DNA of 64,000 nucleotides from Lepiota brunneoincarnata (taxonomy: Eukaryota > Basidiomycota > Agaricomycetes > Agaricales > Agaricaceae): contig JAEBUN010000082.1 in assembly GCA_023014365.1 (NCBI GenBank), positions 1 through 64,000 of the forward strand, read 5' to 3'. The notes under the pieces were generated by a model that saw only the letters and a list, made by a program, of their open reading frames with translations, did no database searches and had not been told where the DNA came from. The translations under genes were made by a program, and so were the position numbers. Shown piece after piece: positions 40,406 through 63,463 of this stretch. Position 1 is the first letter of the stretch. Every line of letters starts with the position of its first letter.

Positions 40406-40870
40406 TAATAATATTCCGCGACGGAACGCGACCGCGTTCCGTCGGGGTCGTCGGGGTCGTCGGGGTCGTTCCCACGGGGGTCGCAGGTCGTTCCCACGCC
40501 CAGCGTCAAGGTCATTGGTCGTTCCCACGACCAGCGCCAAGGTTGTCCATCATTCCCACGGGGTTGCTGGTCGTTCCCACGGCCAGCGTCAAGGTTGTCC
40601 ATCGTTCCCACGGGGTCGCAGGTCGTTCCCACGGCCAGCGTCAAGGTTGTCCATCATTCCCACGGCCAGCATCAAAGGTGATGCATCAAATTCTCACGAG
40701 GTCGCGGGTCGTTCCCACGCCCAGCGCCAAGGTCATCGGTCGTTCCCACGAGGTCGCAGGTCGTTCCCACGCCCAGCGTCAAGGTCCTTGGTCGTTCCCA
40801 CGACCGGCGCCAAGGTCCTCCATCATTCCCACGGGGGGTAGTGGTCACTTGCGCCCAACCAGCGTCAAGG
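40406..40870. repeat. Minisatellite based on GGTCGTTCCCACG
   Basis: Begins with TCGGGGTCG triplet-like units (about 40440-40470) and continues as degenerate units of GGTCGTTCCCACG, CCAGCGTCAAGGT and CCATCATTCCCACGG to about 40870. Long open frames here are repeat artefacts. It adjoins the non-telomeric break of the PLE array. Confidence 0.85.
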
Positions 40871-42759
40871 TCGGAGAGGTCGCCGCTCCTGTCATCTTTC
40901 AACTGTTCTCGCTCGGGAGCACTTCAGTGCTCTCGAGCAGGGAATGCTTGCAGTGACACACCAGCGTCTCGTTCGAGAACGCTCCTTGGCTCATCTCCAC
41001 CGATATCCCCTTCCGTTCCGTTCCAGTCACTGTCCCCCCCCCCCCCCATCCAACCCCCACCAAGTTCATCCCCCCACGCTCATCCACACGGTCCTGTTGT
41101 CCCCCTCCCCCATGCATGGATTTCTAACGAGAATAGCAACCCCAGGATCACGTCCCAGACAGGTTGGGACTCTACCTATATGTACACACATTTACCAGGG
41201 AATGTGATTAAGGTATAATAGTCAAAAAAATACACAAAAGATGGCGAGCTGATCGCAGGCCTTCGATCGTTTGAGAGAATGCCAAGTTGCAGAAATAGGG
41301 ACCATCGAGGATGAATCGGTTCTTCTACATACCCCCGAAACATGCGAGGCCGCTGACGGAACGGGACAAGGGTCCCGTTCAATACCAATGGTGCTCCGAG
41401 ATCCTTGATCCGACAATAATATCCTCCGGGGTTCCGTCAGGGTCCATCTTCCGAGCTCTACAAGAGCTGGCATGTCCGGCGATGTGCCTACCTCTGCAGC
41501 AAACGACGGTGGTGTCTCCACCGCCTTAGGGCATCCTCCAGGAAACAGCGTAAGCGCAATGGAGCCTACGTGCCCTCTGTCGACTCCCCTGTGTCTCCAA
41601 AAAGTGTTCTCGTGCGAGAACGTGTTGTTTTACCCCTTGTACCTTACTTACCGGTGCCAGGGTCGCGGCAGCCTCTTTGGAGGAATGACGTACCCGGAAT
41701 CTAAAAGAGCATGAACGCACCGGCGTTCATGTAAATGTCTGCCGCTCCTCCTTCAAGCTTGAGAGCGGTCGATTAATCAATCTGGGCTGCGCTCACCTTG
41801 TGCAGATCCCCAGCAGCTTCCAACCGAGGCAGAGGCAGAGAGGCTGACGAGTGCAAATTTGCCCAGGCACCCTAAGTCCAGGAACATATTCAGCACGCGC
41901 ACTCGCTCCGAGCATCATTGGGGGAGGAAACTTACAGCACCCGTTCCAATCTTCCCCTCCCCCCGAACCGTTTGGCATTTCACGTTCACAACACATAAAG
42001 TAAAATCTATCTGAAAGGATCAACGGAAAAGGTCAGATAAATCATACCGCCAAAGCGAAGAAAAGAATTTGTACTTGCCTACCAAACACCCTGTGGATGT
42101 TCGCCAACGCGTACACCCGTCTCTCCCCATCGTGGTCGGTGATCACCATGCCGCCGATGCAGATTTGCTTCCGCTGCTTGGAAGATCAGATGCCTGCGCC
42201 AGCCGCCGGACGCTCGAATCACTCACCTCTCCAGCTATCCACCCAAACCGGTACTCGTACCGCTGGAAAGTAGCTTTAAGCCACCGATTATTGTTCGGGA
42301 CGAAAACGCGGTGCCTGCGCTGGAAACCGATGCGTGAATGTGCGCTGATGATTGTATATCGTGCAGATCCTTACCTTGAACGGCCTTGGGTGGTTTACGA
42401 TGGGCTTTCTGGCGATGCGGCGAGCCATAGTGGTCCGGGCGTTGCGGTCAGGCGTTGGTGAGAGGTGAGAGGCGTTGGAGGCAGGTAAGCGATCAATTTC
42501 TCGAATCATGGCGGGAATATGGCCGCTTGGCTCGCTGTGGCTGGAATTCATTCACAGCCCAACCCGGGCGTCACAAGGGCTTGTAGTTCCATGACTCGCT
42601 CGAATTGAGGCAGGAAGAATCAGGCGAGTTTCGACCAGCTTTCACGGAACCCCCCACAAGAAGCCCCTAAAATAGTTGCACAAAGCTGCCCGCTTGGGAC
42701 TATTTGCTGGTGTGGGGAAGGGCGCCCTCAAGCAACAGTATCATGGCCTGCATAGGGCA
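40871..42759. other. Gene-poor spacer
   Basis: I see no supportable gene. It contains a C-run at about 41034-41047 and two near-palindromes, TCTCGTTCGAGAAC (about 40967) and TTCTCGTGCGAGAA (about 41603). Short ORFs in several frames lack recognisable motifs or splice structure. Confidence 0.4.
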
Positions 42760-42885
42760 CACGGCTGGACATGCAATGGCCACCCCATGCCACCGCTCAT
42801 AGAGCTTGGGACGCGGATCCTAAACCCTAATGAGCCCGGAACAAACTCTCGGATCAAGGATCTCGGAGTGCCCCATGCCGTAGGA
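42760..42885 (+). repeat. Dispersed repeat, copy 1
   Basis: GCTGGACATGCAATGGCC, CCCATGCCACC and CGGATCAAGGATCTCGGAG match, with divergence, the reverse complements of copies near 54815-54930 and 57878-57942. Too degraded to assign to a transposon class. Confidence 0.55.
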
Positions 42886-43309
42886 GCCATTGTCATTTCA
42901 ACAGTTTACAGGCCACTCTATGCCTCGCACACCATCCCCTTTATCCTCTCCCTTTCCCTATCCGTGTATGATGATGATCCTTGCTTCCTCTAGCTGGGTG
43001 AGTGCCCCCATTTACTTTGACGTTCTCGCTCGGTCACAGATTATGCCTATTTTGGTCTGTGGGTCCATGCCCGATCACTCCCAATCTAGGGGCAAGATTG
43101 TATGGCCTACTCTCGGAATAAACATTGCCATGTGTCATCACCTCATTATATTCCAGCATCAACTGCAGTAGGAGAAGGGTTAGAAGGGCCCCCCGCCAGC
43201 AGTGGCTACGCTCATCTCCCTCTACCAGCTAGTCTCAGATGAACACCACTCTCCCTCATCGTGCGTTGCCACACACAGGCCAGTGCAGCACATGTGTTCA
43301 CGCATCACC
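42886..43309. other. Spacer without recognisable genes
   Basis: No motif, RNA gene or splice-supported ORF seen. Confidence 0.4.
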
Positions 43310-44035
43310 GGACGTGGGGAGTGTCCACGTATTCCCAATGTGGCAGGCGTGTACGGGTACCGCCTCCCCCGTTGATGCGTACTGTTATCGTGGGAAGTGT
43401 CCACCGCCACGCACTCCCAATGTGGCAAGCGTGATGCGTACTCTCTATCCGTGGGAAGTGTCCATCACCACGCAATCCCAATGTGGCAATCGTGATGCGT
43501 ACTCTCTATCCGTGGGAAGTGTCCATCACCACGCACTCCCAATGTGGCAATCGTGATGCGTACTCTCTATCCGTGGGAAGTGTCCATCACCACGCACTCC
43601 CAATGTGGCAATCGTGATGCGTACTCTCTATCCGTGGGAAGTGTCCATCACCACGCACTCCCAATGTGGCAATCGTGATGCGTACTCTCTATCGTGGGAA
43701 GTGTCCACCGCCACGCACTCCCAATGTGGCAATCGTGATGCGTACTCTCTATCGTGGGAAGTGCCCACTGCCACGCACTCCCAATGTGGCAATCGTGATG
43801 CGTACTCTCTATCGTGGGAAGTGTCCACCGCCACGCACTCCCAATGTGACAATCGTGATGCGTACTCTCTATCGTGGGAAGTGTCCATCACCACGCACTC
43901 CCAATGTGGCAATCGTGATGCGTACTCTCTATCGTGGGAAGTGTCCATCACCACGCACTCCCAATGTGGCAAGCGTGATGCGTACTTTTGATCATGGGAA
44001 GTGTCCGCACTGCTGATATCGTGGGAGTGACCACG
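43310..44035. repeat. Minisatellite, 60-61 bp unit, about 12 copies
   Basis: Units of the form GTGGGAAGTGTCCATCACC, ACGCACTCCCAATGTGGC and AATCGTGATGCGTACTCTC. Left copies have an extra base (CTATCCGTGG) relative to right copies (CTATCGTGG). This changes the period from 61 to 60 bp and opens a fortuitous repeat-encoded frame in the right half. Degenerate relatives appear near 46440-46520. Confidence 0.93.
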
Positions 44036-44629
44036 CATTCCAGATATAGCAGTCGTTCCAAGTACGGGTTCTGTCCAAGTCTCTTCACCGGTAGATGTTC
44101 AAGATGAGCTGAACCTGACAATGAACACCGGATCACGACCCTTGGGGCACTCATGCCCTTGCACACTCTCGCTGATCCGGTGCTGGTCGTCGGTCCCCTC
44201 CACTTACTGCCTTGCCTTGAGGCCATTTATCCTTCATCGCTCCAATTCCCACTCATCCAGCGCTGTGCCACCACGCTTCCGGCAACACCGGCGGTGATTT
44301 TTGGGCCAAGCAGCATCCTCATTTGTCTCCATGGCCGGCCAAGGACCGCCTCGACAAGATTGTTGCCTGCTACGGAATAAGCTTTGCCTCATGCATCCCA
44401 TGGAATTATTCCAAACCAAGATCTAGCCCAAAATCTTGACCAGAATAGACAAGCTCGGTTTCAAGAATTTTTGGAAAACACTCGTTTAGAATAAACACGG
44501 ACCTTACTTGGAAGCTTCTCAAGTTGAGGTTCAGGAAGTGCAGTATTAACTTGACTTACAAAACGTGACTAACAACGGCAGAACGTATTAAAGAGGTTGC
44601 GATCGCAGCAGGTTCTCCCAACATTTGCA
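44036..44629. other. Spacer upstream of the Asn-rich gene
   Basis: Decayed minisatellite remnants extend to about 44060. The rest shows nothing recognisable. The promoter of the gene at 44630 should lie here, but I see no convincing element. Confidence 0.35.
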
Positions 44630-44650
44630 ATGGCTTCCCCTGCCCCCCGC

Positions 44651-44688
<38 letters not shown>

Positions 44689-45103
44689 CGACAACCGCCG
44701 CCGCCGTCGTCCCAGGGACCAATCCGCCGCTGTTTCTGCTCGCCTGGCCCGCGCCATAGAGCTAGGGCCGGCAGAGGGAGGAATCACCAGGGACGAAGTG
44801 TTCGAATTCGTCATGGCCGGCGCAATTGTAAGCATTCAATACTCGGTCTCCATGCAAAAAAAAAACAACGAAGCTCAAGCCTAAAACGTCCACCAGGCAT
44901 ACACGATAGCCATCTACGATGACCCGCAAGGCAGAACCTTCCCGCAAATCATGGAACGGGTCCTCCGGACCATGCAAAGCGATGGTGAGTAACGCAGCAG
45001 CACCTTCATTCCCCCCCCCCACCGCAAATAACGCTTGTCAAATGCAGAGTTTGCCGAACGAAGGGCTGAGATGCTGCGGTGGTTCCAGATGTCGGGATTC
45101 TGA
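44630..45103 (+). CDS. Small uncharacterised protein with poly-Asn tract, three exons
   Basis: Exons 44630-44827, 44897-44984 and 45048-45103 give a 113-residue protein. Introns start gtaagc and gtgagt and end ccaccag and aatgcag, in phases 0 and 1. Residues 8-20 are poly-Asn from a CAA/AAC repeat, followed by a basic DNRRRRRPRDQ segment and then a compact, probably folded part (RLARAIELG, GITRDEVFEFVMAG, AYTIAIYDD, IMERVLRTMQSDEFAERR). The basic patch could be a nuclear signal. I do not recognise the family. The clean splice sites and tight frame make it a likely real gene, but no function can be given. Confidence 0.6.
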
Positions 45104-46019
45104 ACTTTGTTTTTTTTTTATCAATTTATATCTACGTCTTCCTGTGTTGCCTGCCTCCCCCCCCCCCACCAAAAAAATAAAATGCGATGTATGCCCGGCA
45201 GTGTGTCCTATGGGGCGCTTAAGATGCAAGAAAGGAACTGGAGAGGTGGACGAGTGGCTGCAGGTGTAACGACCACCACTCGTCACTGCTAGCGATTGTG
45301 TGATGAACCTGGGACGAACCTTTCAGAACACCCTAGCGAACCCGGATCAAACCTCGGATCAAAATCCTCAGAGTGCGCACATTAAGGAGTTTATCGTAAA
45401 TCTGTCTGTATGCAAGGAATGAGCCCTGGAGACTCGTCCATCTCTCTCAGACAACGTGCCCTATAAAACAATCGCAATCGCACTCGCACCCTGAACCCTT
45501 GGGTCGCCGTGTTTCGTTCCAGCGCTCCTCACTTGCGGAAGAGTCTGCATCTCTTCGGAATCATACTTGCCTGCATACCAATGTGAGCAGTCTATGAACC
45601 CTGCACTTGATCGAGCGATGCTGGGTTGACAGCTCGGTCATCACCCAACCCGACCAATGGCTATCCATGCCAATGGGGCACTGCTATATGTCTCAACCCG
45701 ACGTCTTGCGCTTCAACTAGTGTGCACCTAATTGCGGCACCGACCTCCCTCATCGCCCATCATTGCTACAGATGTGCCTATAACCTTATCGCTCTGTAGT
45801 CTCGCCTGTGCGCACAGAAGTAGCACACTTGCACTTAGATACCTTAGTTCCTAACGATGGAGATGTCCCCCCGCTGCCATAAGACCTTCGATAGGCTACA
45901 GCGTAAAGGACTACAGTTTTGTTTGTACATGGTGCCAGTGTCCCACTCGCACCCGCACATGCGAACAAGGCTTTCTCACCGGGACCGAAATACCCAAGCA
46001 TTCTCACTGTTCCCGGACG
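45104..46019. other. Spacer with a dispersed-repeat remnant
   Basis: About 45262-45376 contains CCCGGATCAAACCTCGGATC and TGTAACGACCACC, resembling the dispersed repeat at 42760 and 57878. Homopolymer runs (T at 45110, C at 45158, A at 45172) occur. No gene seen. Confidence 0.4.
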
Positions 46020-47010
46020 CTCGCACAACGGCAATCCAACTCTATCATGACGATATCTGTCTATCAGAGAGACCCTGAAGTTAATTATCGAGGCAAAGTC
46101 GGACTATCCATTGCACCCGGCAGTAGGCTAAACTCCCTTGTGAGAATGCCGGCTATCACAATTGCCGGAAACCTATACAATGGCTGCGCAAAGGTTTTCG
46201 GTTGCCCCCCGCCATTATTTGGACGTGAAATTCAGATCCAAAGGGTTCTGCACCAGGGTGAATATGCAGATGTGGGACAGAGCGATCGCCACCATTCCAC
46301 CACAGACGTTGACGGCTGCTCTAAAAAATTTTAACCAATTTGAATCTTGAAATGGCCTCGACCATCATCTCTCTCTATCATTCCGGTAGTCCGACAGGGC
46401 CAGGAGGACGTGCGGAAGTGCTGCTCAAGGCCCCTTGTGAGCACAGCATATTCCTGATATGGTGTGAGTGTCCGTACAAAGTCACGCATTCTTGATATGG
46501 TGCGAGCGCCCGTGTACACCTGTCGCATTATTTGGGTTGCAATGCCATTAGCAACCGGAGCAGGCACCCCTGACCGCATATGGGTAGAGCCAACACGGGT
46601 GATGCGTTCTCGTACGCGAACAGGGTGCTCTCACCCAGACCGAGATCGCTAGCGCAGCTATCAAATTCAGTGCCGGCGATAGCAGCAAACCAACTTTATC
46701 ATGACGGTATCTGTCCATCAGAGAGACCCTGAAGTTCATGATCGAGGCCATGCCGTGGAGCTGATCCCGCCGACGGTAAACCAACTCTCTTACGAAAACA
46801 TAAGCTTTCACAGAGTCTCCGGAAACCCCATGAAATACCTGGACAAAGGGAAATACCCTTTTACGAATCCAGGGGGGAACTGCACCCGGGGCAAAAATTG
46901 CAGAAGCGGGACGGAGAGGTGGCTGCCATTCCAACGCAGACGTCCACGTCTGCTCTGAAAATTTCAATCCATTTAAATCTTGAAAAGGCGTTGACCATCG
47001 CTCGCTGGGT
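46020..47010 (+). repeat. Diverged direct duplication (about 350 bp x 2)
   Basis: 46040-46380 and 46692-47005 share CAGAGAGACCCTGAAGTT, a TCATGACG(A/G)TATCTGTC block, GCCATTCCA-like sequence and TTTAAATCTTGAAA-like ends, with roughly every fifth base changed. Possibly remnants of a duplicated small gene, but I cannot find consistent reading frames. Confidence 0.6.
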
Positions 47011-47237
47011 ATCCTAGCTATTGTACTGGTAGGATGAGAGGGCCCAAAAAAATCAATATGATAGAATCGCGTGAGCCCAAAGGCGCCGCAGAATGAATTG
47101 AAAAAAAAGAAAAAGATTGCCGTTTGCGTAGGAATCGATTCTCAATATGAGGAGATGAAGGATGCGAAGGACCGCTCTCTAGCATCCCCCCCAGTTGCTT
47201 TCTCATACCGCTAACCAAGCAAACACTCTAACAAAAC

Positions 47238-50200
47238 ATGCCTTCCCAAACGTTCGCCTGCACGCAATGCGCTGAGACCTTTGCCGAGGTCAATGCCCGC
47301 GATATCCACAGTCGCCGCTGCCACAAAACGGTTACGGTGAACTATGTCAACCGCAAGATCAAGCTCGATCGGCAGGAAGACGGGATGTTCTGGTGCTACT
47401 GCGCCGACAACCACTGCCCCAGGGACTTCCTCACGACCAAGTCCATCCGTGAGCACGCCAGGTCGACTGGGCAGCCATGGGTTGGGCCCAGCGTTCAGGT
47501 TAGCCTGCGCTCGTTATTTCGCACTCCATCCGTGGCCCTGATCTTTTCTTGGCCTAGGATAATGACCCCAGTGAAAGCGGGGACGATGACGACACTCCAC
47601 CACCCCCCGCAAATCAGTTGGCCTTGGTATGCCCCTCCATTTCGTCTCCCCCTACCGCTTCGCATTTCTGACCATTACCCTCTCCCACGTAGCTCACCGC
47701 TGGTACCAATCCAACCCCCGCATCAACTCTCGCATCCCCTGTAAGAGCTTCTTGTCCCTCACATGCCTAGGAAGGCTCGCTAACTACATGCCAGGAGGAT
47801 ACTCATGCTGCTGGTGATCCCGCCGGCGAAGATGACATGGACCTGGGGAGCAACGCTGTAAGTCGACATGTCCTCATGCCCAGCCGTCCCCTATCCTGAT
47901 GCACTGAGCTCCCAGGCCAATGAGGGGGCTTCGGACGATCCGCTCCCAGTCCTCAGCGGAAACACCCTTGTCACCTCGCCCGTCCTCACACTGATGGGTT
48001 TATATTTCAATACGGCCCTTCGCTGCTTCATCTGCCTGGATTGCGGAGTGGCCCTCCTCCCCTCCGCCGCTCACAGTCACGTCCTGTCCTCACATGCTGA
48101 GGGTAAGGTCCCCTTCAATACTATGCAGTTTATTGAGGCCTGTAACGACCTGGAGGTTGCGGACGATTTCCCGGAGGACCTCGACGGGCATGAGGCCATT
48201 GACGGACTCCCACTGTTCCGGAACGCCCTCCTCTGCACCGTAGCTGGGTGCAGAAAGGTATACAACAAGGTGTCGTCCATGCGTCGCCACCACAGGACCC
48301 ACGAACCCTCCCTTCCGATGCCTTCCAGCTGGCCAGTAGTCTGTGCCCAGAGGCTTGACCATTCGCGGCACAACTCGTACTTTGTCGTCGTTCCCAAGGA
48401 GAATGCGCAGGAGCCACCAGCGGAGGAAGGCTCCTCCTTGGCATGGCTGGATGAGATCCAGGGGGCCATCGCTTCGGTTGTCCAACCGGTTTCCCTCGCA
48501 GCTCAAGATGGTCGCGAGCTCACTCCCTGGCTGAGGACTACGCAATGGACCGTCCATGTGGGCCTGCATAGGCCTGAGTTCCTCCGGTCTCTGGTTTCCA
48601 CCCCTGAAAGGAGGGACTATGCATGGCTCATCGATGGGGTGTGCCACATGTATTCCTGCGCCACCAACTACATGGACTCCACGCCTGAGCTGGTCCTTCA
48701 AAAGCTCAATACGAGCGACCCTGCAAAGTAAGTAGCCCTCTTTGCTTCCAATCATAGGGAGATTCTGACCCAGACACACTGCAGAGGGTTCTCCAATGAC
48801 CCTTTCCACGCCCACCAGCATGGGATGGAAACCCTGGAGCGTTACTGTACGGAAGTCATCCGACTTCTAGCATTCCTCCTCCGGGATAGAGGACCCTACG
48901 CACTCCCCCTGCCCCAGCATGTCCAGGTGGCTCTCGACCACCTGGGCACCCTAGGTCCTGCCTCGGCCTCTGAGGTGGGCGTGCTCATGTCCGGGATACA
49001 CAAGGTTCTGCTGGGTATTTGGACTACCAGATGGGACAGGACCCCAGAGAACAGCATAGGTGACCCAACGGTCTGCTACCTGGCCCTGTCGTCCATCCGG
49101 AAGGATGGCAGCTGGGCGCACCCTCGCATCATAACCCCCCGTATAGCCAAACTCCAGCACTGCATGCGCCTCACATTTCTGTACCAGATGCACGCCAGCG
49201 TAGACGTTCGGCAGGAGGCGGCAAACCTCTCTGACTGGTATACAGAAAAACTGGAATCAACGTTCAACTCGCTCAGTTCCCTCCAGCATCGTGCATCCGC
49301 CATCGCATACTCTTCCATCAGCCTACCCTCCATCTGGTGGATGGATTGCGGTCAATACACAGAGCTGCTCTACAAGGGCAGCCGCATCAACCTCGCCCAG
49401 ATTCGGCACTTGGCCCAAGAGCTGGACAGGCACTCCCGCCAGATGTGGCATGAAGATGTGCTCCTGGGGATGGATTTGCGGGCGGAACACGGCTTCTTGG
49501 TGGAGGACCTCAGCCTGGCCACCCCGGGCTACTCCTTTATTGACGACCATCGCAACACCACCTTCAAGAACCGGAGGATCTTTCTTGAGGCTGTTCTCAA
49601 GCACCCTCAGCACTCGCGGTCGTTCATTAGCGGCTACCATCCGGAGACTGGGGAGCCCTACTGGAACATCCAGATGATGAGGAAGTGGCTCTGCAGTTAC
49701 TGCAAGTTTCTGGCCCTCCAGATGACACGATTCGAGATCCTGGGAGGGTCCCCCAGCCGCGGGACTGAGCTTACCTGCATCCAAATCCGCAACACCTCCA
49801 CCCGCACCCGAGGGCTCTATGTCATGGGCGACCACCTTGCCATCGTTTGTCAATACAACAAGACCAGCGCCCTCACAGGCCGGGAGAGGCTGATCCCTCA
49901 CAGCCTGGATGCGTACACGTCGGATCTCATGATCCAAGATCTCGCTATCGCTCGTCCTTTCGCCCAAGTTGTGGCGCACATACTGTACGAGGGGAATCCT
50001 GAGGTCCAAAGGATCTGGAATACCTACCTCTTCGTCAACCGCGACCGGTTGTTCACCACCGACCATGTAACCAAGTGGATGAAGGCCATGACCGGCCCAG
50101 CCATGGGTATCCAGCTAGGCTTACAGCAGTGGAGGCATATCCAGGCTGCCTTTCGTCGCCATCACTGCACCGAGTTCGACCAGCTATTCGATGTGGAGCA

Positions 50201-52862
50201 TGTTGACACGGTGGGCGCCCTTCAGTCTGGGCATAGCAGGTCCACCGAGAATCGAGTGTACGGGATCTCTCCCGACGCTTTCTCGGGGGTAGCGGAGGAT
50301 ATCCTGCCGCTCTTCCTCCAGTCCAGCACCAAGTGGCATGGCGTGTGCCAAGTTACCTGCGGGGGTCAGCTAAGTACTTACAGACCCCCACCCACACCCA
50401 GCACGGCCGCAGATCCCCAACCTATCCCTCCGGTCCCTTCAGCCCCATCCTCTCCTCCTCCTCCTCCTCCTTGTCCTCCTCCTTGTCCTCCTCCTCCTGC
50501 CCCTGCGCCCTTGTGCCAGCCAGCCGCTCAGTCCGGTGGCAGTCAGGTAAGCCTACCACCCAATGTTCCCTTATCAATGCTCAACCTAATCCACCATGAT
50601 GCGATAGCTGGAATCGAAGCCTGAGACAGAAAGGTGAAGTCCACCAACCCCCAACCTACTAACCCTGTGCTGACCCAACCCCTCCTTCCCCCCCACCAAA
50701 GTGCCCCCCACGCTTCACCCGCTCACCTGGATGGACCTGCGCCATCGGAGCAAAAGTCATTGGACCTCGATGTGGTATGCCCCCCCCCCCATACATCTCA
50801 TTCACCACTTGGGCTGATGGTTCGACGTTAGCAGAAAAACCGTTCCGGTTCTTTGGAGAGCCGTGCGCTCTGTGTCCTTCGTGCCCTCCTCAAGGATCCG
50901 GAGGCTACCTGGAGCTCCGAAGGACAGAAGACTGCTGTGCTCGCCGCCGCAAAACGGAAGACTGACGTAGCCGTCTTCCTCGGCACAGGTGGAGGAAAGA
51001 CCATGGCAGGGCTCATTCCAGCCATCCTCGACGGGCAGGAAGGAGCCTTGACCATCTTTGTCCTTCCCCTTCGCTCTCTGCTGAGCGATTACAGCCGCAG
51101 GCTGGATGCCATGGCTGTCCGGTACCAGGTCCACCAGGGCACGGCCACAGCCTGCATACGCAGTCACCCTTACATCGTCCTCGTCACCGCAGAGAACGCA
51201 GCATCCAGCCACTTCCTGGATTGCCTCACTCGGGTCCAGGTCACCAACCCGGTCCACCGCCTTGTCTACGATGAGGCCCATTTTGCCATCACAACGAACG
51301 ACTATCGCGCCTGCATGAACACCGTTTACCTCCTTCGCCAGTTCAGCATGCAGCTGGTTCTGCTCTCAGGGACCGTTTCCCCCACCTCCCAGGAGGCGAT
51401 CGCCCACGCTTTCAACCTCCTTCCATCCACCATCACCGTTCGGGGCAGCACCAACCGCCCCGAGCTCTCATATTCGGTTGCTGGCAGGGCCCAGACGACG
51501 GACCAGCTGATCGAACGCACCAAGTCCCTCTACGAGCTTTATGAGAGGGTCTTAAAGGAGGAGGATCGTGCCCTGGTCTTTGTTCAGACCCTCGATATGG
51601 GCCTGGACGTCGCTGACGCTCTCTCCTGTGATTTCTACAATGGGTCTGTGATGCTGAAAGAGGAGGAACGGCTCGAAATGCACCAGGCATGGCTTTCTGG
51701 AGAGAAGAAGGTGATGGTATGCACCTCTGCATTTGGGGCTGGTAACGATTATCCCCATGTCCGGATGATCATTCATGCAGGGACCCCCAGGGAGATGGTC
51801 AATTATATACAGGAGGCCGGTAGAGCAGGGCGAGACAGGCAGCCCGCTCACTGCTATATCATTCCCCAGTCACGAGCAGCCCCCTCCATCCCCGAAGGCC
51901 TTATTGATCACAAAGGCCAGCAGGCCGCCTACGAGATGATCCACGGCCCCCACGGCTGTCTCAGGCAGCAGATGACGGCATTCATCGATGGAGTGGGCAT
52001 CCAGTGCAGGTCCGATCCGAGCAATATGCTCTGCAACCGGTGCCAGTTGGGGCCTCTGGAGTCCCCGCAGCCCCTGGAGCGCCCTTCACCCCTCGCTGGC
52101 CAGCCTGCCAGCCAACCCCGCTCAGGGCCCTCCACCCAGCCCCCCCGCCGTCAGGCATCCTTGGCCAGGACATCATCTTGGAGCAGCACCCCCAGCATTC
52201 GGCTCAGCCAAGAAGCGGTTAGGGATACCATGCATTCTGGCACCCCTACCCTGTACGTCCCCAGCCCTCACCCCTGTAGCTCTGGCTCGCACGAACCGGT
52301 CGGCTACAATCGCAGGCGCACGAGGGAGCTCCTCCAGGACCCATTCGAGGAGCAGGCGGAAAGTAGCAAACGCAGAAAGATCGGGCAAGACCTCGACGAG
52401 CACATCTCGACGGAGCGAATCCAGACCGCTCTCTTCCTGGTCGATGGCTGCTGCGCTCCTTGCCTTGTCCTCCGGAACCAACGGGAAACCCATCCTCTGA
52501 CCAAGTGTACCACGTTCTCTTCCCTTTTCTCCCGTTACGTTCTTTGGAAGAGAGCCATTACTTACAGCCCCACTGTCCATGGGTCCATCTGTTACTTCTG
52601 CCATGTCCCGCAGATCAACGACGACCTCCATCCTTACTCAAAAACCCCTGCGGAGTGCCCCAACCGCGATGCCGTGGGACCGTGTATTTTCGCCATCCTC
52701 CATTCCCGGCATCTTCGTTCAGAGGCCCAGCAGTTCTTTGGGGTTGAGTGGGCGGACGATCGAGATTTTGCTCGCTGGGTCTCGGGTAACCCGGTGGGCC
52801 GGTTCATCACGAGGGGGCTTGCTGTCTTCCTCTGGTTTGTGGAGGAGAAGCTTGAGAAATAG
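47238..52862 (+). CDS. Telomere-linked RecQ helicase fused to C2H2 zinc fingers and a tyrosine-recombinase-like domain
   Basis: Predicted exons 47238-47498, 47795-47857, 47916-48727, 48785-50546, 50634-50774 and 50832-52862 keep frame throughout and give 1689 residues. Residues 5-30 form a C2H2 finger (FACTQCAETF..HSRRCH). Cys/His-rich segments follow in exons 1 and 3 (CFICLDCG.., CTVAGCRKVYNK..RRHHRTH). Residues about 690-880 show the tyrosine-recombinase order: Arg704 (SRGTEL), Lys738 (YNKTSA), Arg829/His830 (QWRHIQ), His862 and Tyr871 (GHSRSTENRVYG). The last pair has the 9-residue spacing usual in that family. After a proline-rich linker comes a RecQ-type superfamily 2 helicase: GTGGGKT (Lys1069), DEAH (1160-1163), SGT, FGAGNDYP, QEAGRAGRDRQ, a Cys cluster, and a Cys/His-rich C-terminal domain (CCAPC, CYFCHVP). 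RecQ genes of this kind sit beside telomeres in several fungi. The intron 47858-47915 is the least certain. Confidence 0.8.
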
Positions 52863-53149
52863 TCATAGTAAATTCATGTAATCACTATTCTTATTGAATG
52901 CCATCGCCCCCTTCCGGGGCTCTCCTTAGGCCCGATGTCAGACGTTGGGCGATCCGGCTGCTCTTGGAAGGCCCTGAGTTCTCGTAAGAGAACAAGTTAC
53001 CGTATCTGAGATTTTGCAGAAGCCACGGGTGCTCTCGCACGCAAGCCGCCGCCCGATGAAATCGTTCCTTGGACCGGAAAGGGTTGACATAATTAGAGGA
53101 GCATGGATTTAAGCAGAAGGAAAGGCTTTACCGAACCCCCAGATTCGCT
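52863..53149. other. Short intergenic region
   Basis: Contains the dyad GTTCTCGTAAGAGAAC at about 52978-52993 between the helicase gene and the next gene. Terminator and promoter signals are not distinctive. Confidence 0.35.
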
Positions 53150-54696
53150 ATGTCCCGCAAACTCCACTCGCATTTGCGCAACGCACGCGACCAATTCAAT
53201 CAAGAGATAGACGGGATGTTGGCCATTGACAGAGACGAACCAGGGATTCGAAGCCGCGTTCAAAGCCTCCATAAATATGCGCACCACATCCTCGAGCTGA
53301 CCACTCGAGTATGCCAAGAATTCGAGCTCGATCTCGACGACCCGGAGTTCTTGCATGCACCCAGCCAACCGGACCCAACTCCGTCCGATGAAAACGAGGA
53401 CGGGGAAGGGGAAGGGGAAGGGGAAGGGGAAGGGGAAGAGGAGGAACCAGGACCAGGTACGAAAACTGAGGGCAGACTGGTTGCACCATTCTGACTTGGC
53501 TGTAGGATTGAGAACGCGCGAGGGTAACCGCACCGCGCAAGCAGCGGTGAGTACGGGGCCATTACCCTAGGTTATCTTTGGCTAACGGCGATGTGAGGCT
53601 GCGCGTGCGGACCTCGTAGAGGTCTTCAAGGAAGTGAAGGAGCTATACCAGCCCGATGGGCAAATCGTGTTGGACATCGTTTCCCCAAGGAACGACGTTA
53701 GCAGCATGGTCAAGGACAATATTGCCTTTGGACGGCTGTTGTCGCTCTATGCGCCGCCTGAGGAGGATGAGGTGGAGACGCTGCTGAGGAAACTTGGGTT
53801 GAATGAAAGGCGCTGGCTTGGTTTCCATGAACGCCTTGTCCAGACTGAAGGAGGGCACGGAGATGCCTCTTTACTGGCGATGGAGCAGGTGAGCACCAGA
53901 ATTTCACGCGCGCCGCCTGACACAGCTCACCGGGGTTGCAGGTCATGAGGACGGCTAGAGAAGGTTCCCAGATCTACGTCTGGGTAGAGTCCGTCATCAG
54001 CACGGTGGTGCAGCTCAAGTTTGCAAGAGCATGGAAGGCCAGAGGAGGCCGTCGGGGCTGGAAGAAGAAATTTGCAGAAGACCTTTTTGAAGCACTCAAG
54101 GTGAGAGAGGAAGGAATACTTCCAAGGGCTGCTCCAGCCGCTCCAGATACTCCAGTCCCTCGGGATACTCCAGCCCCTTCAGCTACTCCAGCCCCTTCAG
54201 CCGCTCCAGCTGAGACAGAGGAGAGAGAAAGGGAGAAGAAGGCATTCTGTGCCTCTCACCGAAAGCTCGTGGCTTCTCGGAACCGAATTCTAATGCTCTA
54301 TGACACCGTGGGTCCATATATATGCTCTCAAACTATGTCAAGTATTGATGTGGTTAGTAGTTTGGGGCAACGGTGCTCACCCAAACGGTGTTTCGGCCGG
54401 CGATCAATATTTTGCCCAGGTGGCATACCCCCTCCTTTGCACGCAACGCAACGTACCTGGTTCAGCACCACTTGGACATCATGGTAGAGGTAGGGTTGCT
54501 CCCACTGTACCGAACGGCTCACGGAAGAGAAGGGGGCACTGATGAACAGGTGATGAGGGAATGGATTCAAGAGACTCATGTTGCGGCGACGCAGTGGGTT
54601 GTTGAGATATTGAGGGTTGTCACAGAGCCCCAGATAGCGGAGTGGGTTAGGGAGTTCTTAGTTGGAGAGCCGCCAGGATATATGGTGCAGCTGTGA
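53150..54696 (+). CDS. Uncharacterised multi-exon protein with Gly-Glu repeat
   Basis: Starts MSRKLHSHLRNARDQF at 53150. Exons 53150-53456, 53506-53546, 53598-53888 and one from 53942 join in frame with normal GT..AG borders. The last exon (about 54373-54696) encodes LVQHHLDIMVEVGLLP .. GEPPGYMVQL and a stop. The junction between about 54290 and 54373 is unresolved because two frames look coding there. Exon 1 is helical and ends in a (GE)n run from a GGGGAA hexamer repeat. The middle is helical (EVETLLRKLGLNERRW), and residues near 54121-54215 form a degenerate TPAPSATPAPSA linker. No known domain recognised. It may be an agaric-specific protein. Confidence 0.5.
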
Positions 54697-55054
54697 CTAG
54701 TGGGGCGGTTACTAGTTTCATCTGTCTAGGAACTGCTGTAGTAAAATGGATGAAATGCCACTGACTTGGTGGACTGGTTTCCTCAGACTCGAGACACCGC
54801 CGAACGACGGCTGTCGCTTCGGCGGGGGGGGCGCTCCGATCGTCTTGATCCGGAGTCCATTCCGGGTTCGGCTTCCGAGTTCGACGAGAGGTGGCGTGGG
54901 GCAGCCGTTACATGTCCAGCCCGCATGCCCACCTCTACGCCGAATGCCATTGACTTGGCGCACTGGTTCCACCTTGAACAACTTCTAAGACATTTTACAG
55001 GGCCCCCCCAAGTTATGAGCAAGCTAAATATTGCCCTCCAGGGAAAAGAGGGAG
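54697..55054. other. Spacer with dispersed repeat, copy in minus orientation
   Basis: 54815-54930 is the reverse-orientation relative of the repeat at 42760 (GTGGGGCAGCCGTTACATGT, GATCCGGAGTCC). Duplicated short segments GCCACTGACTTGGTGGACTGG and GCCATTGACTTGGCGCACTGG lie at about 54757 and 54949 on either side of it, resembling a flanking duplication. Confidence 0.45.
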
Positions 55055-55315
55055 CGCAAGGATGGACACCGCGCGCAAACGCGGCAACGGTGGGCACTAT
55101 GCCCAGATACGGCAACAGTGGACACCGCGCGCAAACGCGGCAACGGACACTATGCACAAATACGGCAACAGTGGACACCGCGCGCAAACGCGGGCAACGG
55201 ACACTATGCCCAAATACGGCAACGGTGGACACACTGTGCCCAAATACGGCAACGGTGGACACACTGTGCCCAAATACTGGCCAGCAGCGGACACCCCACC
55301 CAAATACGGCGAGGG
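55055..55315. repeat. Minisatellite of CGGCAACGGTGGACAC units
   Basis: Two interleaved forms, GGACACCGCGCGCAAACGCG and GGACACACTGTGCCCAAATAC, each followed by GGCAACGG or GGCAACAG. The repeat is open in several frames on both strands, and those ORFs are not genes. Confidence 0.85.
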
Positions 55316-55526
55316 CTGAAGGTCTGCCTGCGACCAAGCATGCCTCCTCCGCCATCTCCTCAAGCCCAAGGCTTCTCCATGCTCCCCATCCTGCAAGACC
55401 CGCCCTCGTTGCTTTTTGTATAGGGCGGCAAAATTCGCCAGTGCGCGGGAACCCTTGCAGGGTCGTTACGTGGCTATTAAAAGCCCTTGCCACATCATCG
55501 GGTTGAACTTGAACGCCAACCACCTT

Positions 55527-55582
55527 CGCCTTCGCTCTCGCTCTCGCCCTCGCCCTCGCCCTCGCCCTCGCCCTCACCCTGA
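55527..55582. repeat. CGCCCT hexamer repeat
   Basis: About nine CGCTCT/CGCCCT units. It gives Arg-Ala or Arg-Pro runs in overlapping frames, and I do not regard these as coding. Confidence 0.85.
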
Positions 55583-56149
55583 ACCCCCTCCGTCGCTTCG
55601 GCTCTCTCTCTCCTTGGCCATTGGCCCTCCCTCTGCTCGGCCTGCGTGGCAGCGCTGGAGCTTGGATCCTCCCATGTGCGCAGTGGGAAGATCCAAGCTC
55701 CAGCGTAGGGTATGTTTCTGTCTGATCCTTGCTTGCTCTCACATCTGCTCTTTTCTAGGCAGGTAGAATCCATATACGTTTGGGACATGTTTGGATGATT
55801 TTATTTTGGAACCCTTTGACAATTCCTGAGCGCTGTACCAGCGCATCTCACTCCGGAGTCTGAGAATTTTAAACCCCCATTTCTGATACAATTTTTGTTT
55901 GTTTATTGATTTTGTCAACTTGAATTTGTATTTGTGCTATGTAAAAAGGACTTGGCCTTTGTTGTGAATGTGAATTGAATAGGGTGTCAGACTTTCAACC
56001 CGGTGAACTCTTTAGGGCCGGTCAAGTAAAGCCAAAGACCCGCCTTATGGGCAAGTCTGCCAAGGGAATAAATAGTTTTACCTAGTCCAACGTTAAGTAA
56101 ACAAGTCCCGCCTGGCTGCTAGCAGCCCAGCCACCAAGCAACTGAAAAA
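55583..56149. other. Spacer without recognisable genes
   Basis: A perfect inverted repeat (GAGCTTGGATC at about 55659 and GATCCAAGCTC at about 55691, in CTGGAGCTTGGATC / GATCCAAGCTCCAG) could form a stable hairpin. AT-rich from 55790. Confidence 0.45.
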
Positions 56150-57760
56150 ATGCCCAAGGAAAAGTCCTCCAGGCAAGAAAAAGTTCAAAAGATGGACAAG
56201 GTGGGTTTGCATATACAGCTCGCTCTGCGCTTGGGGACTTTGGCTGAACCAGCATACCCAGCCAGCTGAAAGGGGCCAGAAAATTCCACCCCCTCCGCCC
56301 AGGTTGTATATGATGAAAGAAGCCTTGTGCGGCAGCAGGAACAGAAGTAGGAGCCCCGCTGTAAGACTTCAAATGACCCTGGAGCAGGCAGAGCGTAGGG
56401 TTGGGGATTTCTTACTTTATGCAGACATGTACAGAATGCCTTTTACGCATGAAGACCTGAAGGCCCAAAACGGTCGCTTGGATGAAAGAAAGGCCGAGCT
56501 GGAGGCATTTTGCAACAAGGAACTGGGACCTGGGCAGCCTAGCCGGCCATTCTCTGCTCAATACTTCGACAGGGACGGCAAACCGCTGTTCTTTTACTTT
56601 GGAGTGAGAAGGAGAAGTGACCGGGTGGGTTGGCTCGCATGACTGATCCTGTAAACTCATTTGCTTACTGGAGCATCAGGAGCTCAAGCGGCCGGTTGAC
56701 CTGGGTGGAGACCTTTCGGTTCAATACCAAGGTAGGACGGTGCTAGACATGCACCGCGGTGACCTGGTTGAGGATGGGATAGGAGTAAGTGGCCTCTTTC
56801 GTGCTATATTGATTATTAAGCTTTGGCAGGACCGGTTAGCCAAGGCCTACCAGCATGCTACGCAGGCGCTGTGCGCTGTGGTGAAGCCAAAGGCATGCAC
56901 CAGCGCAGACAAGAGGCACAAATCTGGGGACTTGGATGGAGGGGTGCTGAGATACAGGGTCCAAGGGTCAGGGGAACTACGGGAGGAGAGCACCGGAGTA
57001 CTTCACCTTGTTCAAGGGTGGATACAGCAGGGCCAAAGAGAGCGGGTGAGTGCTGCCGCTCCGTGGAACAAGGTATAATACATACGATCCTGAACGTATC
57101 TTAGGGCCTGTACCTCTCAGAACCCATGTCAAGGAGTGGAATGGCAGCAGGAGCGGTGGCTGGGTACTACTTTGAGACGAGCCCGGTGGCCAAGATTTTG
57201 GCCATTATGTTCAAGGCGACGTTCCCGAGCATGTACGCCAAGTATGAGAAAGCTTTCGAGGCGGGAGCTTGGTTCCAGGATGGAAGAGACCCGGGACCTT
57301 GGCTGGGAAGAGCCATCATATACAAGCTCCAAGGTGATCTGCATGTGGACGACAAGGATTTTGGGCCAGCGGCATGTTTTCCATGCGGTGATTTCATAGG
57401 GGGGGAGATGTGCCTTCCCCAATTTGGAGCCAAATTCTCGTCTGTACCCCCTCCCTTCCTTACTCTCGCCGTCCTCGCTCTAATGCCTTGATCTTCATCA
57501 GATATTTTCCAGGACATGTCTGTCTCTTTGAGTCAGCAGACATATGGCACAAAGTCTGTCTCTACCAACCGCTCCCCCACAACCCTTCAATACCCTCCCT
57601 GACCCCAGGAAGAATTTCCACTGTCTTTTTCTTCCCTGAAGCCAGCTATGAGATTCTCAAGGACAAAGAGAAGGAGTGGGGGTTAAGGACAAACTATGGA
57701 AGGGGGGGGAAGCCTAGAGGACAAGCTGATCTGCAAGAGGACGTGAGGGATGAAGCCTAG
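56150..57760 (+). CDS. 2OG-Fe(II) dioxygenase-like protein, possibly JBP/TET-related
   Basis: A multi-exon gene. The first exon is probably 56150-56200 (MPKEKSSRQEKVQKMDK), followed by a helical N-terminal part (MTLEQAERRVGDFLLYADMYRM, about 56373-56600), a segment ELKRPVDLGGDLSVQYQGR (about 56680-56770), and a catalytic part (57126-57445 joined to about 57502-57760). The catalytic part has HVDD (candidate Fe-binding HxD) in LQGDLHVDDKDFG, then FPCGDFIGGE, FPGHVCLFESADIWHKV (candidate second His) and GRISTVFFF (candidate 2OG-binding Arg). This double-stranded beta-helix signature resembles the expanded agaricomycete JBP/TET-like oxygenases that act on modified bases in nucleic acids. Assignment to that group rather than another 2OG oxygenase family is tentative. 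Internal exon borders between 56640 and 57126 are unresolved. Confidence 0.5.
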
Positions 57761-58218
57761 CCTGCATGCAGAATTGGTTCCTGCACACATTTGTACTTAG
57801 ATTCTGAAGTGAAAGTGAAGGGAAACCATGTGAAACCCATCCAAAAGAAAATCGAAACGATAGCGGCTCCGTTGGCCTGGGCGCTCCAGTTTCTTGATCC
57901 GGGGTTTGATCCGGGTGGGGCAGTCGTTACATGTGCAGCCTCTTAGGGACTTGTTCTCTTGAGAGAACTAAGCTACAACGGTGTGGAGAGCGCTCCCAGG
58001 TGCTATGGTCCAAGATTCGTCCCTTAGTCTTCGTTTTTTCTCAGTTTCTCAGACGCACTCGTTCGTTGGCACAGCCACAACCATCGCGTGACCAAGGTTC
58101 GTTTCCTATATACGGTAACCGTGACTTTCTTTCGCGCTGTCCCAAGCCCGCCAACCCTACCCATACCTGGAAACGCTTGGCACTGATCTTGAACCCATCG
58201 CGCCCACAAGCTTGCAAA
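57761..58218. other. Spacer with dispersed repeat and dyad
   Basis: 57878-57942 holds a short minus-orientation copy of the dispersed repeat (GATCCGGGGTTTGATCCGGG, GTCGTTACATGTGCAGCC). Right after it is the perfect dyad GTTCTCTTGAGAGAAC (57953-57968). Confidence 0.5.
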
Positions 58219-58445
58219 ATGCAATTCATCGAATGCGCCCCCAATGGAGACGGTCAGGTCAAGCCCGTAGCTCCGTAAGTCGTTTCCGATCAGATTCTCC
58301 AATATTAATTATAGATCTGCCTGTTAGTATCACCAATCCGGACGCGCCGGAGGAGCAGAGGAAGAGGAAGAAAGCGGAACGAATGAGGGCCAAAAGGTTG
58401 GTGCCGGAGAAGCCACAGACCGCGATTCTGACCATTTCCCGTTAG
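58219..58445 (+). CDS. Small basic protein, two exons, uncertain
   Basis: A start MQFIECAPNGDGQVKPVA (58219) ends in a consensus donor (CC/GTAAGT). After an AATTATAG acceptor region the frame SITNPDAPEEQRKRKKAERM .. ILTISR ends with TAG at 58443-58445. The predicted phases do not match cleanly, so the splice or the frame is uncertain. The second part is highly basic (RKRKKAERMRAKR), suggesting nuclear location if expressed. Unknown family. Confidence 0.3.
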
Positions 58446-58515
58446 GGCCAGGGACAGGGGAGGAAAGGGCTCAAAAAGCGTGAGATTTGCTTTTCATACG
58501 CGTCTATGTCCACTC

Positions 58516-60658
58516 ATGGATAGCAGCCGGGCGGAGGGGTCGGGGTCAAGCCCGGCCAAGAAAAAAAGAAAGGCGGAGTGAGTGCTTGCCTGTACCTTCG
58601 CCGCTGATCTCAACTCCCTTCCACTTAGGGCTGCACAATACGACACGGCGGGGGCAAGCCATGCGCCGGGTGATATTGTAATGCGTTCACCGACGCCTGA
58701 GGCGGTCAACGGGGGCGAAATGTGTCCGCCAGCCCTCGGTGACCTGGCGGCCGGACTGATTACAATGCGTTCACCGACGCCTGAGGCTGTCAACGGCGAC
58801 GGCGAAATGGGTCCGCCAACCCTCGCTGATCCGGCGGCGGCCAGAGGTGTTGCAATGCGTCCACCCACGCCTGAGGTCGTGAATGGCAGCGAGGTGGGTC
58901 CGCCAGCCCTCACCGACCCGGCGGCCGGAGCTGTTGGTCAAGAAGAAGAAGGGCCCTCGCAGGAACCCTCACGCGCGGCAGTCAAGCGTGATTGGGTGAC
59001 AGGAGTGCTCGGGGAGGAAATTTCCCAAGATGCGCCGACAGTTGAGTGGGCAAATGGAACGAAGACGGTGCTGGCCGTTCATTCCAAGCAATGATGGGGA
59101 GGACAGAAATGTACTGTATAAGGTGGGTATTTTTTCTATATAGAAAGCATGTACATAGGCTGAGATTTGAACTATAGGATGAGAAAGCGGTGAGACTGTT
59201 GGCGGAACGGGCAGTGGACTGGGAAGGGTGCGAGTTCGTGAGATGTCTCCGAGGAAGTCAGGATGGGAACGCGGGGGACCTTGTGGAGGAGTGCCGGCAC
59301 CTCCTGGCTAGGGGGTTTGTGGTAGTAGTGAAGGACTTTGAACGGAGGAGGCCTGAACCACTCACGCTGGAGTTCCTGGAGAAGAGAAAGCTGGAGGTGA
59401 ATCACCTTCCAAGGGACTTTCATGGTAAGAAGTATGGTTCTAGCAAGGGGATGGATGGGCTAATGTCTGGCTCAGATGCGATGTTGAGGGCAGTTGAACC
59501 TAGCCAGCCGTACCACTTGGGGACGCTGAGTGAGTTCTTGGAAATGTGAGGAATCAGAACGTGGTCCAGTGCATCCTGGATCTGCCTTCCCCCGACCTGA
59601 ACCGTCCGGCGATAGCAGAGTGAGTGTATAGGATTGTGTGGATAGGCAGCTGGGCTTAACTGGTTACCAGAGGTCTAGATGATGCGACGCCGGCGCTCCT
59701 GTTCTCCTGCACAGATGTGTTGCAGGGCTCCGCCGGGAAATGCCAGGGGCACGCGCTGAAGAGCAGGGAAATGGGAGCTCATCCACCACGGTGGGGTTTC
59801 ACACATATGCGCACAAGGATGCGGTATGGGCATGGGACGTTCGTGCGGGTGCTGTCAGGGGTGAAAATGTGGGTGGTGATTCGGCCAGAAAAAGTTGTGG
59901 GGGCGAAAGGCAAGGGGGAGCTGAATAGGGCGAACGAGGTGATGGTGAAAGTTGGGATTGATGAGAGGAACGGGGAGGAAGTTGCAGGATGGCTGGACAC
60001 GGCGGACTGATGGCGTCGTTGATTCAGGCTGAACCGGGAGATCTGGTGCAAGTACCCCCCTGTTTTTTACTTAGAGAAAGGATGCTAAAAGCAGGGCAAC
60101 AGAATCATGCCGCCCTGGAACGTGGCATGAAGTGTACACGCCATGCAAAAGTTTTGCTACGGGGGGGCACTTCATCTCGTACGACACGATGCATCTGATG
60201 GAGGCCTCCCGGCGGTTTTGACCACACGAAGGCAAGGCGTCTACGAATGCACACCATCCGGAGCTGTTTACCACGCTGTGCTATATGACGGTGGCGATGC
60301 TGCGGACAGATGGCAGAAGTGAGTTCTGGTGATCTTGGATCTGGATTGGTGGAAGTAACCTGTGCTGTAGGGTTTTTGAAGAAGCCGGTTGTTTCGCTAT
60401 GCAAGATGGTCATACACCCGAACGCTTACACGCAGCAGGGTGTGGGGAAATGAGAGGTGGAAAGAGGAGTCTGAGAAGGAGGCCAAGGTGCTTGCGACCA
60501 CGGTGGCGAAAGCGATCCTTAAACTGGATGCTGCGTACTCTCGGGATGATTTCCTATTCCAAGGGAAGGATTGGATGGATCCGTTGGATGAGATAGACCT
60601 GAGGCCGGTGTTCGGTCCGTTTGAGGGTGGAGCGGGGAGCATTAGGAAGGGGGGGTAG
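58516..60658 (+). pseudogene. JmjC-domain-like protein gene with apparent frameshift(s)
   Basis: Exon 1 58516-58577 encodes MDSSRAEGSGSSPAKKKRK, with a nuclear-localisation-like run. It splices (gtgagt..cttag) to 58629, which begins a segment with three imperfect repeats of MRSPTPEAVNG..GPPALxDPAAG. Downstream exons encode EECRHLLARGFVVVVKDFE and FLEKRKLEVNHLP, then a JmjC-like core: GFHTYAHKDA (candidate HxD) and GTFVRVLSGVKMWVVIRPEK lie in different frames at about 59822, so one base appears extra there. Next come AEPGDLVQV, PGTWHEVYTP (candidate second His), and GGHFISYDTMHLMEASRR, which is typical of agaric JmjC proteins. The last exon ends EGGAGSIRKGG, TAG 60656-60658. Either a real mutation or a sequencing error would explain the shift. 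JmjC proteins are 2OG-dependent hydroxylases, often histone demethylases. The substrate here is unknown. Confidence 0.5.
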
Positions 60659-62571: not shown

Positions 62572-63330
62572 TTACTTCTCTTCTTTTTCGTTTACTGTTG
62601 TTAGGTGATTCTTTTGTCCCCATTTTGCTTTGTAGTTTCTTATTGCTTGTTTTCTCTTTTCGTACGGTACTCTTTCTGTTATTTTCCAGTCTATGTCTAG
62701 TTTCTCTTTCATCATTTGGGTTCCATGGATCTGTTAGTGTTTTGTCTGTATGTTCCGTTTCGTTTATTACGCTTTTGTATTTTTCTGTTATGTTTCTTGT
62801 TGTCGTATCGTTTTCGTCTTCTGGCCTATTATGACGGCTCCTATTCCCATTAGAATGCGTATGTTTGGTTTGACCCAGGGTGTGTCGTCTGTTGACTTTG
62901 TCCACGTTTCTTCTAGGTGTTTCCATATTTTCGTTTGTTCCTTTTTTACATTTGATTCTATTGGTCCGCAAGCGCATAAAGCCCTTTCTATCTAGTCCTG
63001 GGATTCTCATGAAGTATTGTCCGCATTTTATTCTGTTGTGTATTATCTTCCATATGAAGTCTGCGATCTTGTATGGTATTATTCCTTTGTTTAGGCCTAA
63101 CCCTAAGTTCTTTTCTGTTGGTCTGATGTTGAGGGCTTCTTCTATGTGTGCTTTCGGTTTCTCTATGTTGTTTCTCGTTGTTCTTGTACCTGGGTTGCGC
63201 TTTTTTTCTTTTATTATTAGATTATATGCTGTATCATGTTCTAACGGTTGGAGTCTTGCCCCTCGCCATTCAAAGGTCTCGTGGAGTCTTTTTTCGCTCT
63301 GGGTTCTCTCCTAAATGGAATTTTGTTGGT
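62572..63330 (-). mobile_element. Non-LTR retrotransposon (LINE) 3' remnant
   Basis: Minus-strand frames with shifts between them encode a LINE-like C-terminal region: IADFIWKIIHNRIKCGQYF, then a Cys-rich ALCACGPIES segment, and KRKQAIRNYKAKWGQKN before TAA at 62572-62574. The order W.I.H.R..CG followed by C.CG..E resembles the region after the RT in fungal non-LTR elements. The A-rich sense strand contrasts strongly with the flanking GC-rich DNA. Frameshifts make it inactive. Upstream RT motifs are absent, so this is the 3' part only. Confidence 0.6.
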
Positions 63331-63445
63331 TTGTCTGGTAGTTCATGTGTGTGCTTTATGCATTTGAATTGTGTTGGGCATTGTGTTTTTCTTAGTCTGT
63401 TAGGCCTGGGGAGGGATTGGTGGGTGGGACTGGTGTGGAGAGGGA

Positions 63446-63463
63446 AGGGTTAGGGGGTTAGGG
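63446..63463 (+). repeat. Telomere-type repeat at a second chromosomal flank
   Basis: AGGGTTAGGGGGTTAGGG joins LINE-flanking DNA to a PLE 3' tail, in the same orientation as at 4638. Confidence 0.88.

What the first reader, a model, noticed from the sequence alone, without database searches (positions are those of the whole stretch)
47238..52862. Zinc finger, tyrosine-recombinase-like and RecQ helicase domains in one predicted subtelomeric protein
Exon phases link three modules into one 1689-residue protein. The middle module shows Arg704, Lys738, Arg829, His862 and Tyr871 in the order and approximate spacing of tyrosine recombinases, including the 9-residue His-to-Tyr gap. A DNA-targeting finger, a strand-exchange enzyme and a helicase in one telomere-linked gene would suit spreading between chromosome ends. 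I do not recall this reading of telomere-linked helicases and could not search.
Basis: partly seen in the sequence, partly recalled or inferred. Interest (0 to 1): 0.8.

Follow-up and report, generated by a model that had tools for sequence, protein, structure and literature searches.

The report
Telomere helicase carrying hidden DNA recombinase
A gene family known as a "helicase" near fungal chromosome ends also carries, in the same predicted protein, what looks like an intact site-specific DNA-cutting-and-joining enzyme, which may be what moves or attaches these chromosome-end segments.

The parts
47238..52862 (+). Telomere-linked-helicase-type gene; 1714-aa working model (exons 47238-47498, 47558-47626, 47693-47740, 47795-47857, 47916-48727, 48785-50546, 50608-50633, 50702-50774, 50832-52862)
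   Evidence: Splice model without internal stops; the join between 50531 and 50834 is ambiguous; no RNA evidence
48006..48305 (+). OrsD zinc-finger domain (PF12013); further Cys/His pairs lie in exon 1 (47238-47498)
   Evidence: Pfam E 1.2e-06, 29.4 bits vs cut-off 26.6 in the exon-5 frame; 25.5 bits, under the cut-off, in the joined model; exon-1 fingers read by eye
48786..50282 (+). Tyrosine recombinase module (core-binding plus catalytic domain; residues 1-499 of window:48786-50546)
49758..49760 (+).
   Evidence: R in 100 of 103 scorable of 107 rows
49860..49862 (+).
   Evidence: K in 105 of 106 scorable of 107 rows
50133..50135 (+).
   Evidence: R in 95 of 99 scorable of 107 rows
50232..50234 (+).
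   Evidence: H in 100 of 102 scorable of 107 rows
50259..50261 (+).
   Evidence: Y in 103 of 103 scorable of 107 rows
50922..51836 (+). RecQ-type helicase core (DEAD 50922-51389, Helicase_C 51534-51836)
40405..63445 (+). Repeated ~23-kb subtelomeric unit that holds the gene; inner end fixed, outer end variable
40416..40447 (.). Near-terminal inverted repeat, 15-nt arms, 93% complementary, 2-nt spacer
   Evidence: DNA fold -18.1 kcal/mol, z -2.33, 6 of 200 shuffles at least as stable
40467..40833 (.). Subterminal array of CGTTCCCACG (13 sites: 10 exact, 3 with one mismatch)
   Evidence: 26 sites in the whole window vs 6.0 expected; 11 of the other 13 are single-mismatch sites in the flanking modules

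Best explanation
Fungal telomere-linked helicases of this type are OrsD finger - tyrosine recombinase - RecQ helicase proteins, and here the protein is encoded by a subtelomeric mobile unit of about 23 kb. Shown: the recombinase fold, the conserved catalytic residues, the linkage to the helicase, the position near contig ends, and a unit whose inner end is identical to the base in four different flanks while its outer end is variable or followed by telomeric repeats. Inferred: the fingers and/or recombinase bind the repeat-rich inner end, the RecQ motor opens the DNA, and Tyr910 forms a 3'-phosphotyrosyl link that joins the inner end to an eroded chromosome end or to another subtelomere.
Against: No activity, transcript or excision product was seen. 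The box-II HxxR histidine is mostly N, S or Q. No terminal inverted or direct repeat between the two ends of the C21 unit was found and the outer end is not fixed. The palindrome lies inside the unit, 11 nt from the junction, so it is not obviously the crossover site. Near-identity of copies could come from homologous recombination. Copies on C5 (47%) and C47 (decayed) lie more than 100 kb from a contig end. S. pombe tlh genes are stated to be non-essential (PMC8466458, passage).
Confidence: 0.55

Rival explanations
1. The protein is a recombinase-helicase fusion but now serves the host, for example by resolving or rearranging recombining subtelomeres, and does not mobilise its own unit.
For: The two parts co-diverge over the whole sampled family. 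Coding sequence is less diverged between copies than the rest of the unit (C21: 3 of 5145 vs 175 of 17631; C42: 3 of 5145 vs 75 of 15101; C45: 0 of 5145 vs 31 of 17799; C71: 4 of 5143 vs 92 of 17738). Upregulation in U. maydis telomerase-negative survivors (PMC10532341, passages).
Against: The gene lies in a unit with a fixed end in four flanks. Presence is patchy: all five A. bisporus var. burnettii homokaryons and none of four var. bisporus (PMC7473861, passages). The few coding differences include synonymous ones at a similarly low rate, so homogenisation explains the low divergence as well as selection does.
Confidence: 0.25
2. The unit spreads only by homologous recombination or break-induced replication between chromosome ends; the recombinase is a passenger with no present role.
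For: Ends share long near-identical blocks (35 kb at 99.15% between C83 and C45), as expected for recombination.
Against: Catalytic residues stay among the most conserved columns in divergent homologs, which a passenger would not show. Homology-driven exchange does not by itself give four different flanks at the same base.
Confidence: 0.15
3. The inner end belongs to a Helitron-like element that captured the gene (hairpin about 11 nt from the terminus).
For: Hairpin plus short tail ending ...TTAG when read outward.
Against: The outward tail is not CTRR and the next base is G, G, G, T in the four flanks rather than always T; no Rep match in the frames scanned with Pfam (not every frame of the unit). 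Helitron rules are recalled.
Confidence: 0.03

Closest known systems
Fungal telomere-linked / subtelomeric RecQ helicases (TLH; A. bisporus var. burnettii subtelomeric RecQs, U. maydis UTASa/UTASb, F. oxysporum tlh)
   Same: Same helicase family: the best helicase-region hit is A. bisporus var. burnettii Agabi119p4_3276 (P0066, 43%), and homologs are named tlh1 or tlh2. Near chromosome ends. OrsD is noted for U. maydis UTASb (PMC10532341, passages).
   Different: [quoted passage not shown] That P0066 is one of that paper's 19 subtelomeric genes was not checked.
Xer / Cre / lambda-type tyrosine recombinases
   Same: Fold, and order of R, K, R, H, Y with His-to-Tyr 8-9.
   Different: No sequence-level match; about 120 residues between the first catalytic-domain strands and box I; HxxR histidine absent; fused to fingers and RecQ.
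Crypton and Starship tyrosine-recombinase transposons of fungi
   Same: Eukaryotic mobile DNA with a tyrosine recombinase as mobiliser (general knowledge; search listings only).
   Different: No Pfam recombinase domain appeared; fused RecQ helicase; near chromosome ends; only one fixed end.
Telomere resolvases (TelK)

Membership tests
Tyrosine recombinase superfamily | Core-binding plus catalytic fold | tested here: met
   [not shown]
Tyrosine recombinase superfamily | Box I Arg, beta Lys, box II Arg, box III His, nucleophilic Tyr, in order | tested here: met
   90 of 108 rows keep all five; 6 have one substitution; 12 have a gap at one or more (some with a substitution as well)
Tyrosine recombinase superfamily | First His of the box II HxxR motif | tested here: not met
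   position 865 is N 25, S 10, Q 7, R 6, gap 5, G 3 of 59 rows (commonest six shown); a His lies just after the Arg instead (47 of 54). Other recombinases also vary here (recalled)
Tyrosine recombinase superfamily | DNA cleavage by a phosphotyrosyl intermediate | not testable with these tools
   needs biochemistry
Telomere-linked helicase (TLH) | RecQ-type helicase core close to other TLHs | tested here: met
Telomere-linked helicase (TLH) | Gene near the chromosome end | tested here: met
   C45 copy about 14 kb from terminal TTAGGG; the window's own contig (not telomere-capped) ends 13 kb beyond the gene
Starship captain | DUF3435 domain | tested here: inconclusive
   no Pfam match on the module or on six homologs; no direct comparison with captains was made
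Crypton | Crypton-type recombinase, insertion at short direct repeats | tested here: inconclusive
   no Pfam match; only one defined unit end, so insertion sites could not be read
Helitron | CTRR end, insertion before T, Rep-helicase | tested here: not met
   outward end TTAG; flanks start G, G, G, T. Rep: no match in the frames scanned, not every frame of the unit

The most novel reading that the evidence does not exclude
Telomere-linked helicases across Dikarya are not merely helicases but recombinase-helicase machines that attach terminal DNA units, by a tyrosine-recombinase reaction at one defined unit end, to eroded chromosome ends: a eukaryotic, recombinase-based route of chromosome-end capture that could act beside or instead of telomerase.
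Probability: 0.25. Interest if true: 0.95.

Novelty: new variant of a known kind. Interest (0 to 1): 0.8.

Why it matters
Subtelomeric RecQ-like genes have been reported at fungal chromosome ends since 1998 (cited in PMC7473861 and PMC10532341) and their function is still debated there. A conserved, apparently intact tyrosine recombinase in the same protein, in both Ascomycota and Basidiomycota, turns this into a direct test: does the enzyme cut and join DNA, and does it move its own subtelomeric unit? If so, it would link fungal chromosome-end plasticity to site-specific recombination and add a new architecture to eukaryotic mobile elements.

Tried and rejected
Chance motif: rejected by fold and conservation. 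Composition artefact: residue-shuffled versions of the 107 module-bearing proteins gave 0 profile hits at E <= 10, and the other 70 new RecQ rows of the helicase search gave 0. Sequence-level searches (Pfam, PHROGs, NCBIfam, PDB profile) gave no recombinase. Foldseek alone was inconclusive in PDB and in the viral library. Folding the whole Fusarium homolog P0094 (pLDDT 77, pTM 0.45) gave a RecQ core, but helicase chains filled the list, so its recombinase part was not tested structurally; its strand and helix order resembles the window model. Unit ends: no terminal repeat between the ends of the C21 copy; the outer-end 156 bases also have weak matches on C9 and C39. dN/dS: too few differences. 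Full-length MAFFT timed out. Papers: (telomere-linked helicase + tyrosine recombinase) held 0 papers; no listed title or abstract start joins the two, but searches listed only 15 of 831, 10 of 39 and 25 of 210, and most listed papers were not opened. I saw passages only of PMC7473861, PMC12857005, PMC10799480, PMC8381367, PMC8466458 and PMC10532341. The 1998 U. maydis, 2002 rice-blast and 2024 F. oxysporum tlh papers were not read (seen as references), and S. pombe tlh1/2, M. oryzae TLH and U. maydis sequences were not tested.

Full report
Observation. The gene at 47238-52862 (+) is real as far as can be tested here. Splice models without internal stops exist; I worked with one of 1714 aa. The stretch 50531-50834 allows several joins. 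OrsD matches at 1.2e-06 in the exon-5 frame (in the joined N-terminal model it falls just under the Pfam cut-off, 25.5 vs 26.6 bits), DEAD and Helicase_C match the last exon, and the middle exon matches nothing in Pfam.

Conservation. In the first homolog set (58 proteins plus the query) R743 is R in 56 of 56 scorable rows, K777 58 of 59, R868 50 of 54, H901 56 of 56, Y910 57 of 57. That set was recruited with the module itself, so a second was recruited by helicase similarity alone (best 120 listed of 2703; 112 new). Of the new rows 42 match the module profile at E < 1e-10 and 70 do not match at all. By their listed names the 70 include BLM-type and bacterial RecQs and one Amanita protein with an RQC domain; many are unnamed and were not classified. 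Of the 42, 25 are divergent: R 23 of 25, K 24 of 24, R 23 of 23, H 22 of 23, Y 23 of 23 scorable. Two of these, P0083 and P0103, match only in part and give no reading for the last three residues; P0103 also has W at R743. Over all 107 module-bearing proteins Tyr is never substituted (103 scorable). In the 25 divergent plus 8 Ceratobasidium proteins the five columns rank 10, 2, 3, 6 and 4 of 415 by entropy. Against the reading: the HxxR first His is absent, and 18 of 108 rows (107 proteins plus the query) lack one or more of the five residues, 12 with gaps and 6 with one substitution.

One protein, old fusion. Where both parts are found, the recombinase precedes the helicase in 92 of 92 proteins (of 107). 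Pairwise distances of the two parts correlate (74 proteins, Mantel r 0.900; largest of 999 permutations 0.172). Homologs with OrsD, module and helicase in one predicted protein come from several sources. Named hosts include Fusarium falciforme, Trichoderma arundinaceum, Dactylonectria, Friedmanniomyces and Glutinoglossum (Ascomycota by general knowledge) and many Agaricomycetes. The best helicase relative is A. bisporus var. burnettii (P0066). PMC7473861 (passages) describes subtelomeric RecQ helicases of that variety as having no domain beyond the helicase core, whereas the module profile hits P0066 at 1.1e-167; I did not check that P0066 is one of that paper's genes.

Place in the genome. 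The window is the first 64,000 bases of contig C83 (65,969 bases) of a 55.6-Mb assembly. Other copies of the module (lower bounds): 100% on C42 and C45, a near-identical one on C21, one on C71 with frame breaks (over aligned coding bases it differs at only 4 of 5143 positions), 47% on C5, decayed on C47 and C76, relatives of 22-25% on C87, C63 and C32, and short fragments on C63 and C73. C45 runs into terminal TTAGGG repeats about 14 kb past the gene, and C83 matches it at 99.15% over 35 kb. The copies on C42, C45, C83, C21, C71, C76, C87 and C32 lie within about 35 kb of a contig end and point outward; C5 (140 kb) and C47 (107 kb) do not lie near an end, and the C63 relative points inward.

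The unit. Comparison of contig ends defines a block, C83 40405-63445, set between arrays of modules of about 2.5-3.8 kb. All 11 module starts printed follow a TTAGGG-like run, three of them a short one. The ORF at 38969-40549 (-) contains YIDD by eye and only a weak RVT_1 match (E 0.06); I take these modules as telomere-attached Penelope-like retroelements of the Coprina kind, from memory. The block's inner end, CTAATAATATTCCGCG..., is preceded by four different flanks: C83 = C45, C42, C21 and C71. The first three are module sequence cut at different points; in C71 the module match stops 158 bases before the junction. The end pattern occurs five times in the genome, only there. The outer end varies: C83 and C45 stop at GAAGG and then TTAGGG; C21 and C71 go on for about 1.1 kb; C42 stops about 2.8 kb earlier, then TTAGGG. 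A fixed inner end joined to broken ends, with an eroding outer side, is what a terminal mobile unit would give. Just inside the inner end are a 15-nt palindrome and 13 copies of CGTTCCCACG.

Divergence between copies is lower in the coding model than in the rest (C21: 3 of 5145 vs 175 of 17631; the Fisher p of 6e-16 treats sites as independent). But the low stretch reaches beyond the gene (about 46.4-54.4 kb, and other stretches are low too), the rest includes tandem arrays, and synonymous changes are as rare, so homogenisation is as good an explanation as selection.

Mechanism. Shown: fold, residues, fusion, location, fixed end. Inferred: the enzyme acts at the inner end and joins it to chromosome ends. 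I give the full statement 0.55, and the tyrosine-recombinase identity of the module by itself about 0.95.

Novelty. Searches, in an open-licence library and with capped listings, showed no report of a tyrosine recombinase in telomere-linked helicases. PMC10532341 (passages) mentions a conserved "core" and an OrsD domain in U. maydis UTASb; whether that core is this module was not tested. Subscription papers could hold it.

Noticed in passing
window 4692-40404 and 63446-64000: Array of 2.5-3.8-kb modules; 11 of 11 module starts printed follow a TTAGGG-like run. The ORF 38969-40549 (-) looks like a Penelope-like reverse transcriptase (YIDD by eye, weak RVT_1). Probably Coprina-type telomeric retroelements (recalled).
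   Followed up: partly
window 40405-40860: Unit end with a 15-nt palindrome and an array of 13 CGTTCCCACG sites whose sequence resembles the palindrome arms; possible recombinase or finger binding sites.
   Followed up: partly
window 40400-40410 and the matching ends on C42, C21, C71: Read outward, the unit ends ...TTAG and three of four flanks start with G (two with GG), giving a TTAGG(G)-like joint; could be microhomology to telomeric repeats or chance.
   Followed up: no
window 46404-54404 vs C21, C42, C45, C71: Stretch around the gene nearly identical between copies while other parts of the unit differ more, synonymous sites included: looks like recent homogenisation.
   Followed up: partly
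window 1994-2962 and 43373-44006: Minisatellite arrays: 50-bp unit x 19.4 and 60-bp unit x 10.5.
   Followed up: no
window about 52400-52800: Cys-rich tail after the helicase with Cys pairs, possible zinc-binding domain; similar Cys pairs appear in the consensus of divergent homologs.
   Followed up: no
L021, L023, L024 (C87, C63, C32): More distant recombinase relatives (22-25%) near contig ends; a GH...Y motif with spacing 9 is present in all three.
   Followed up: partly
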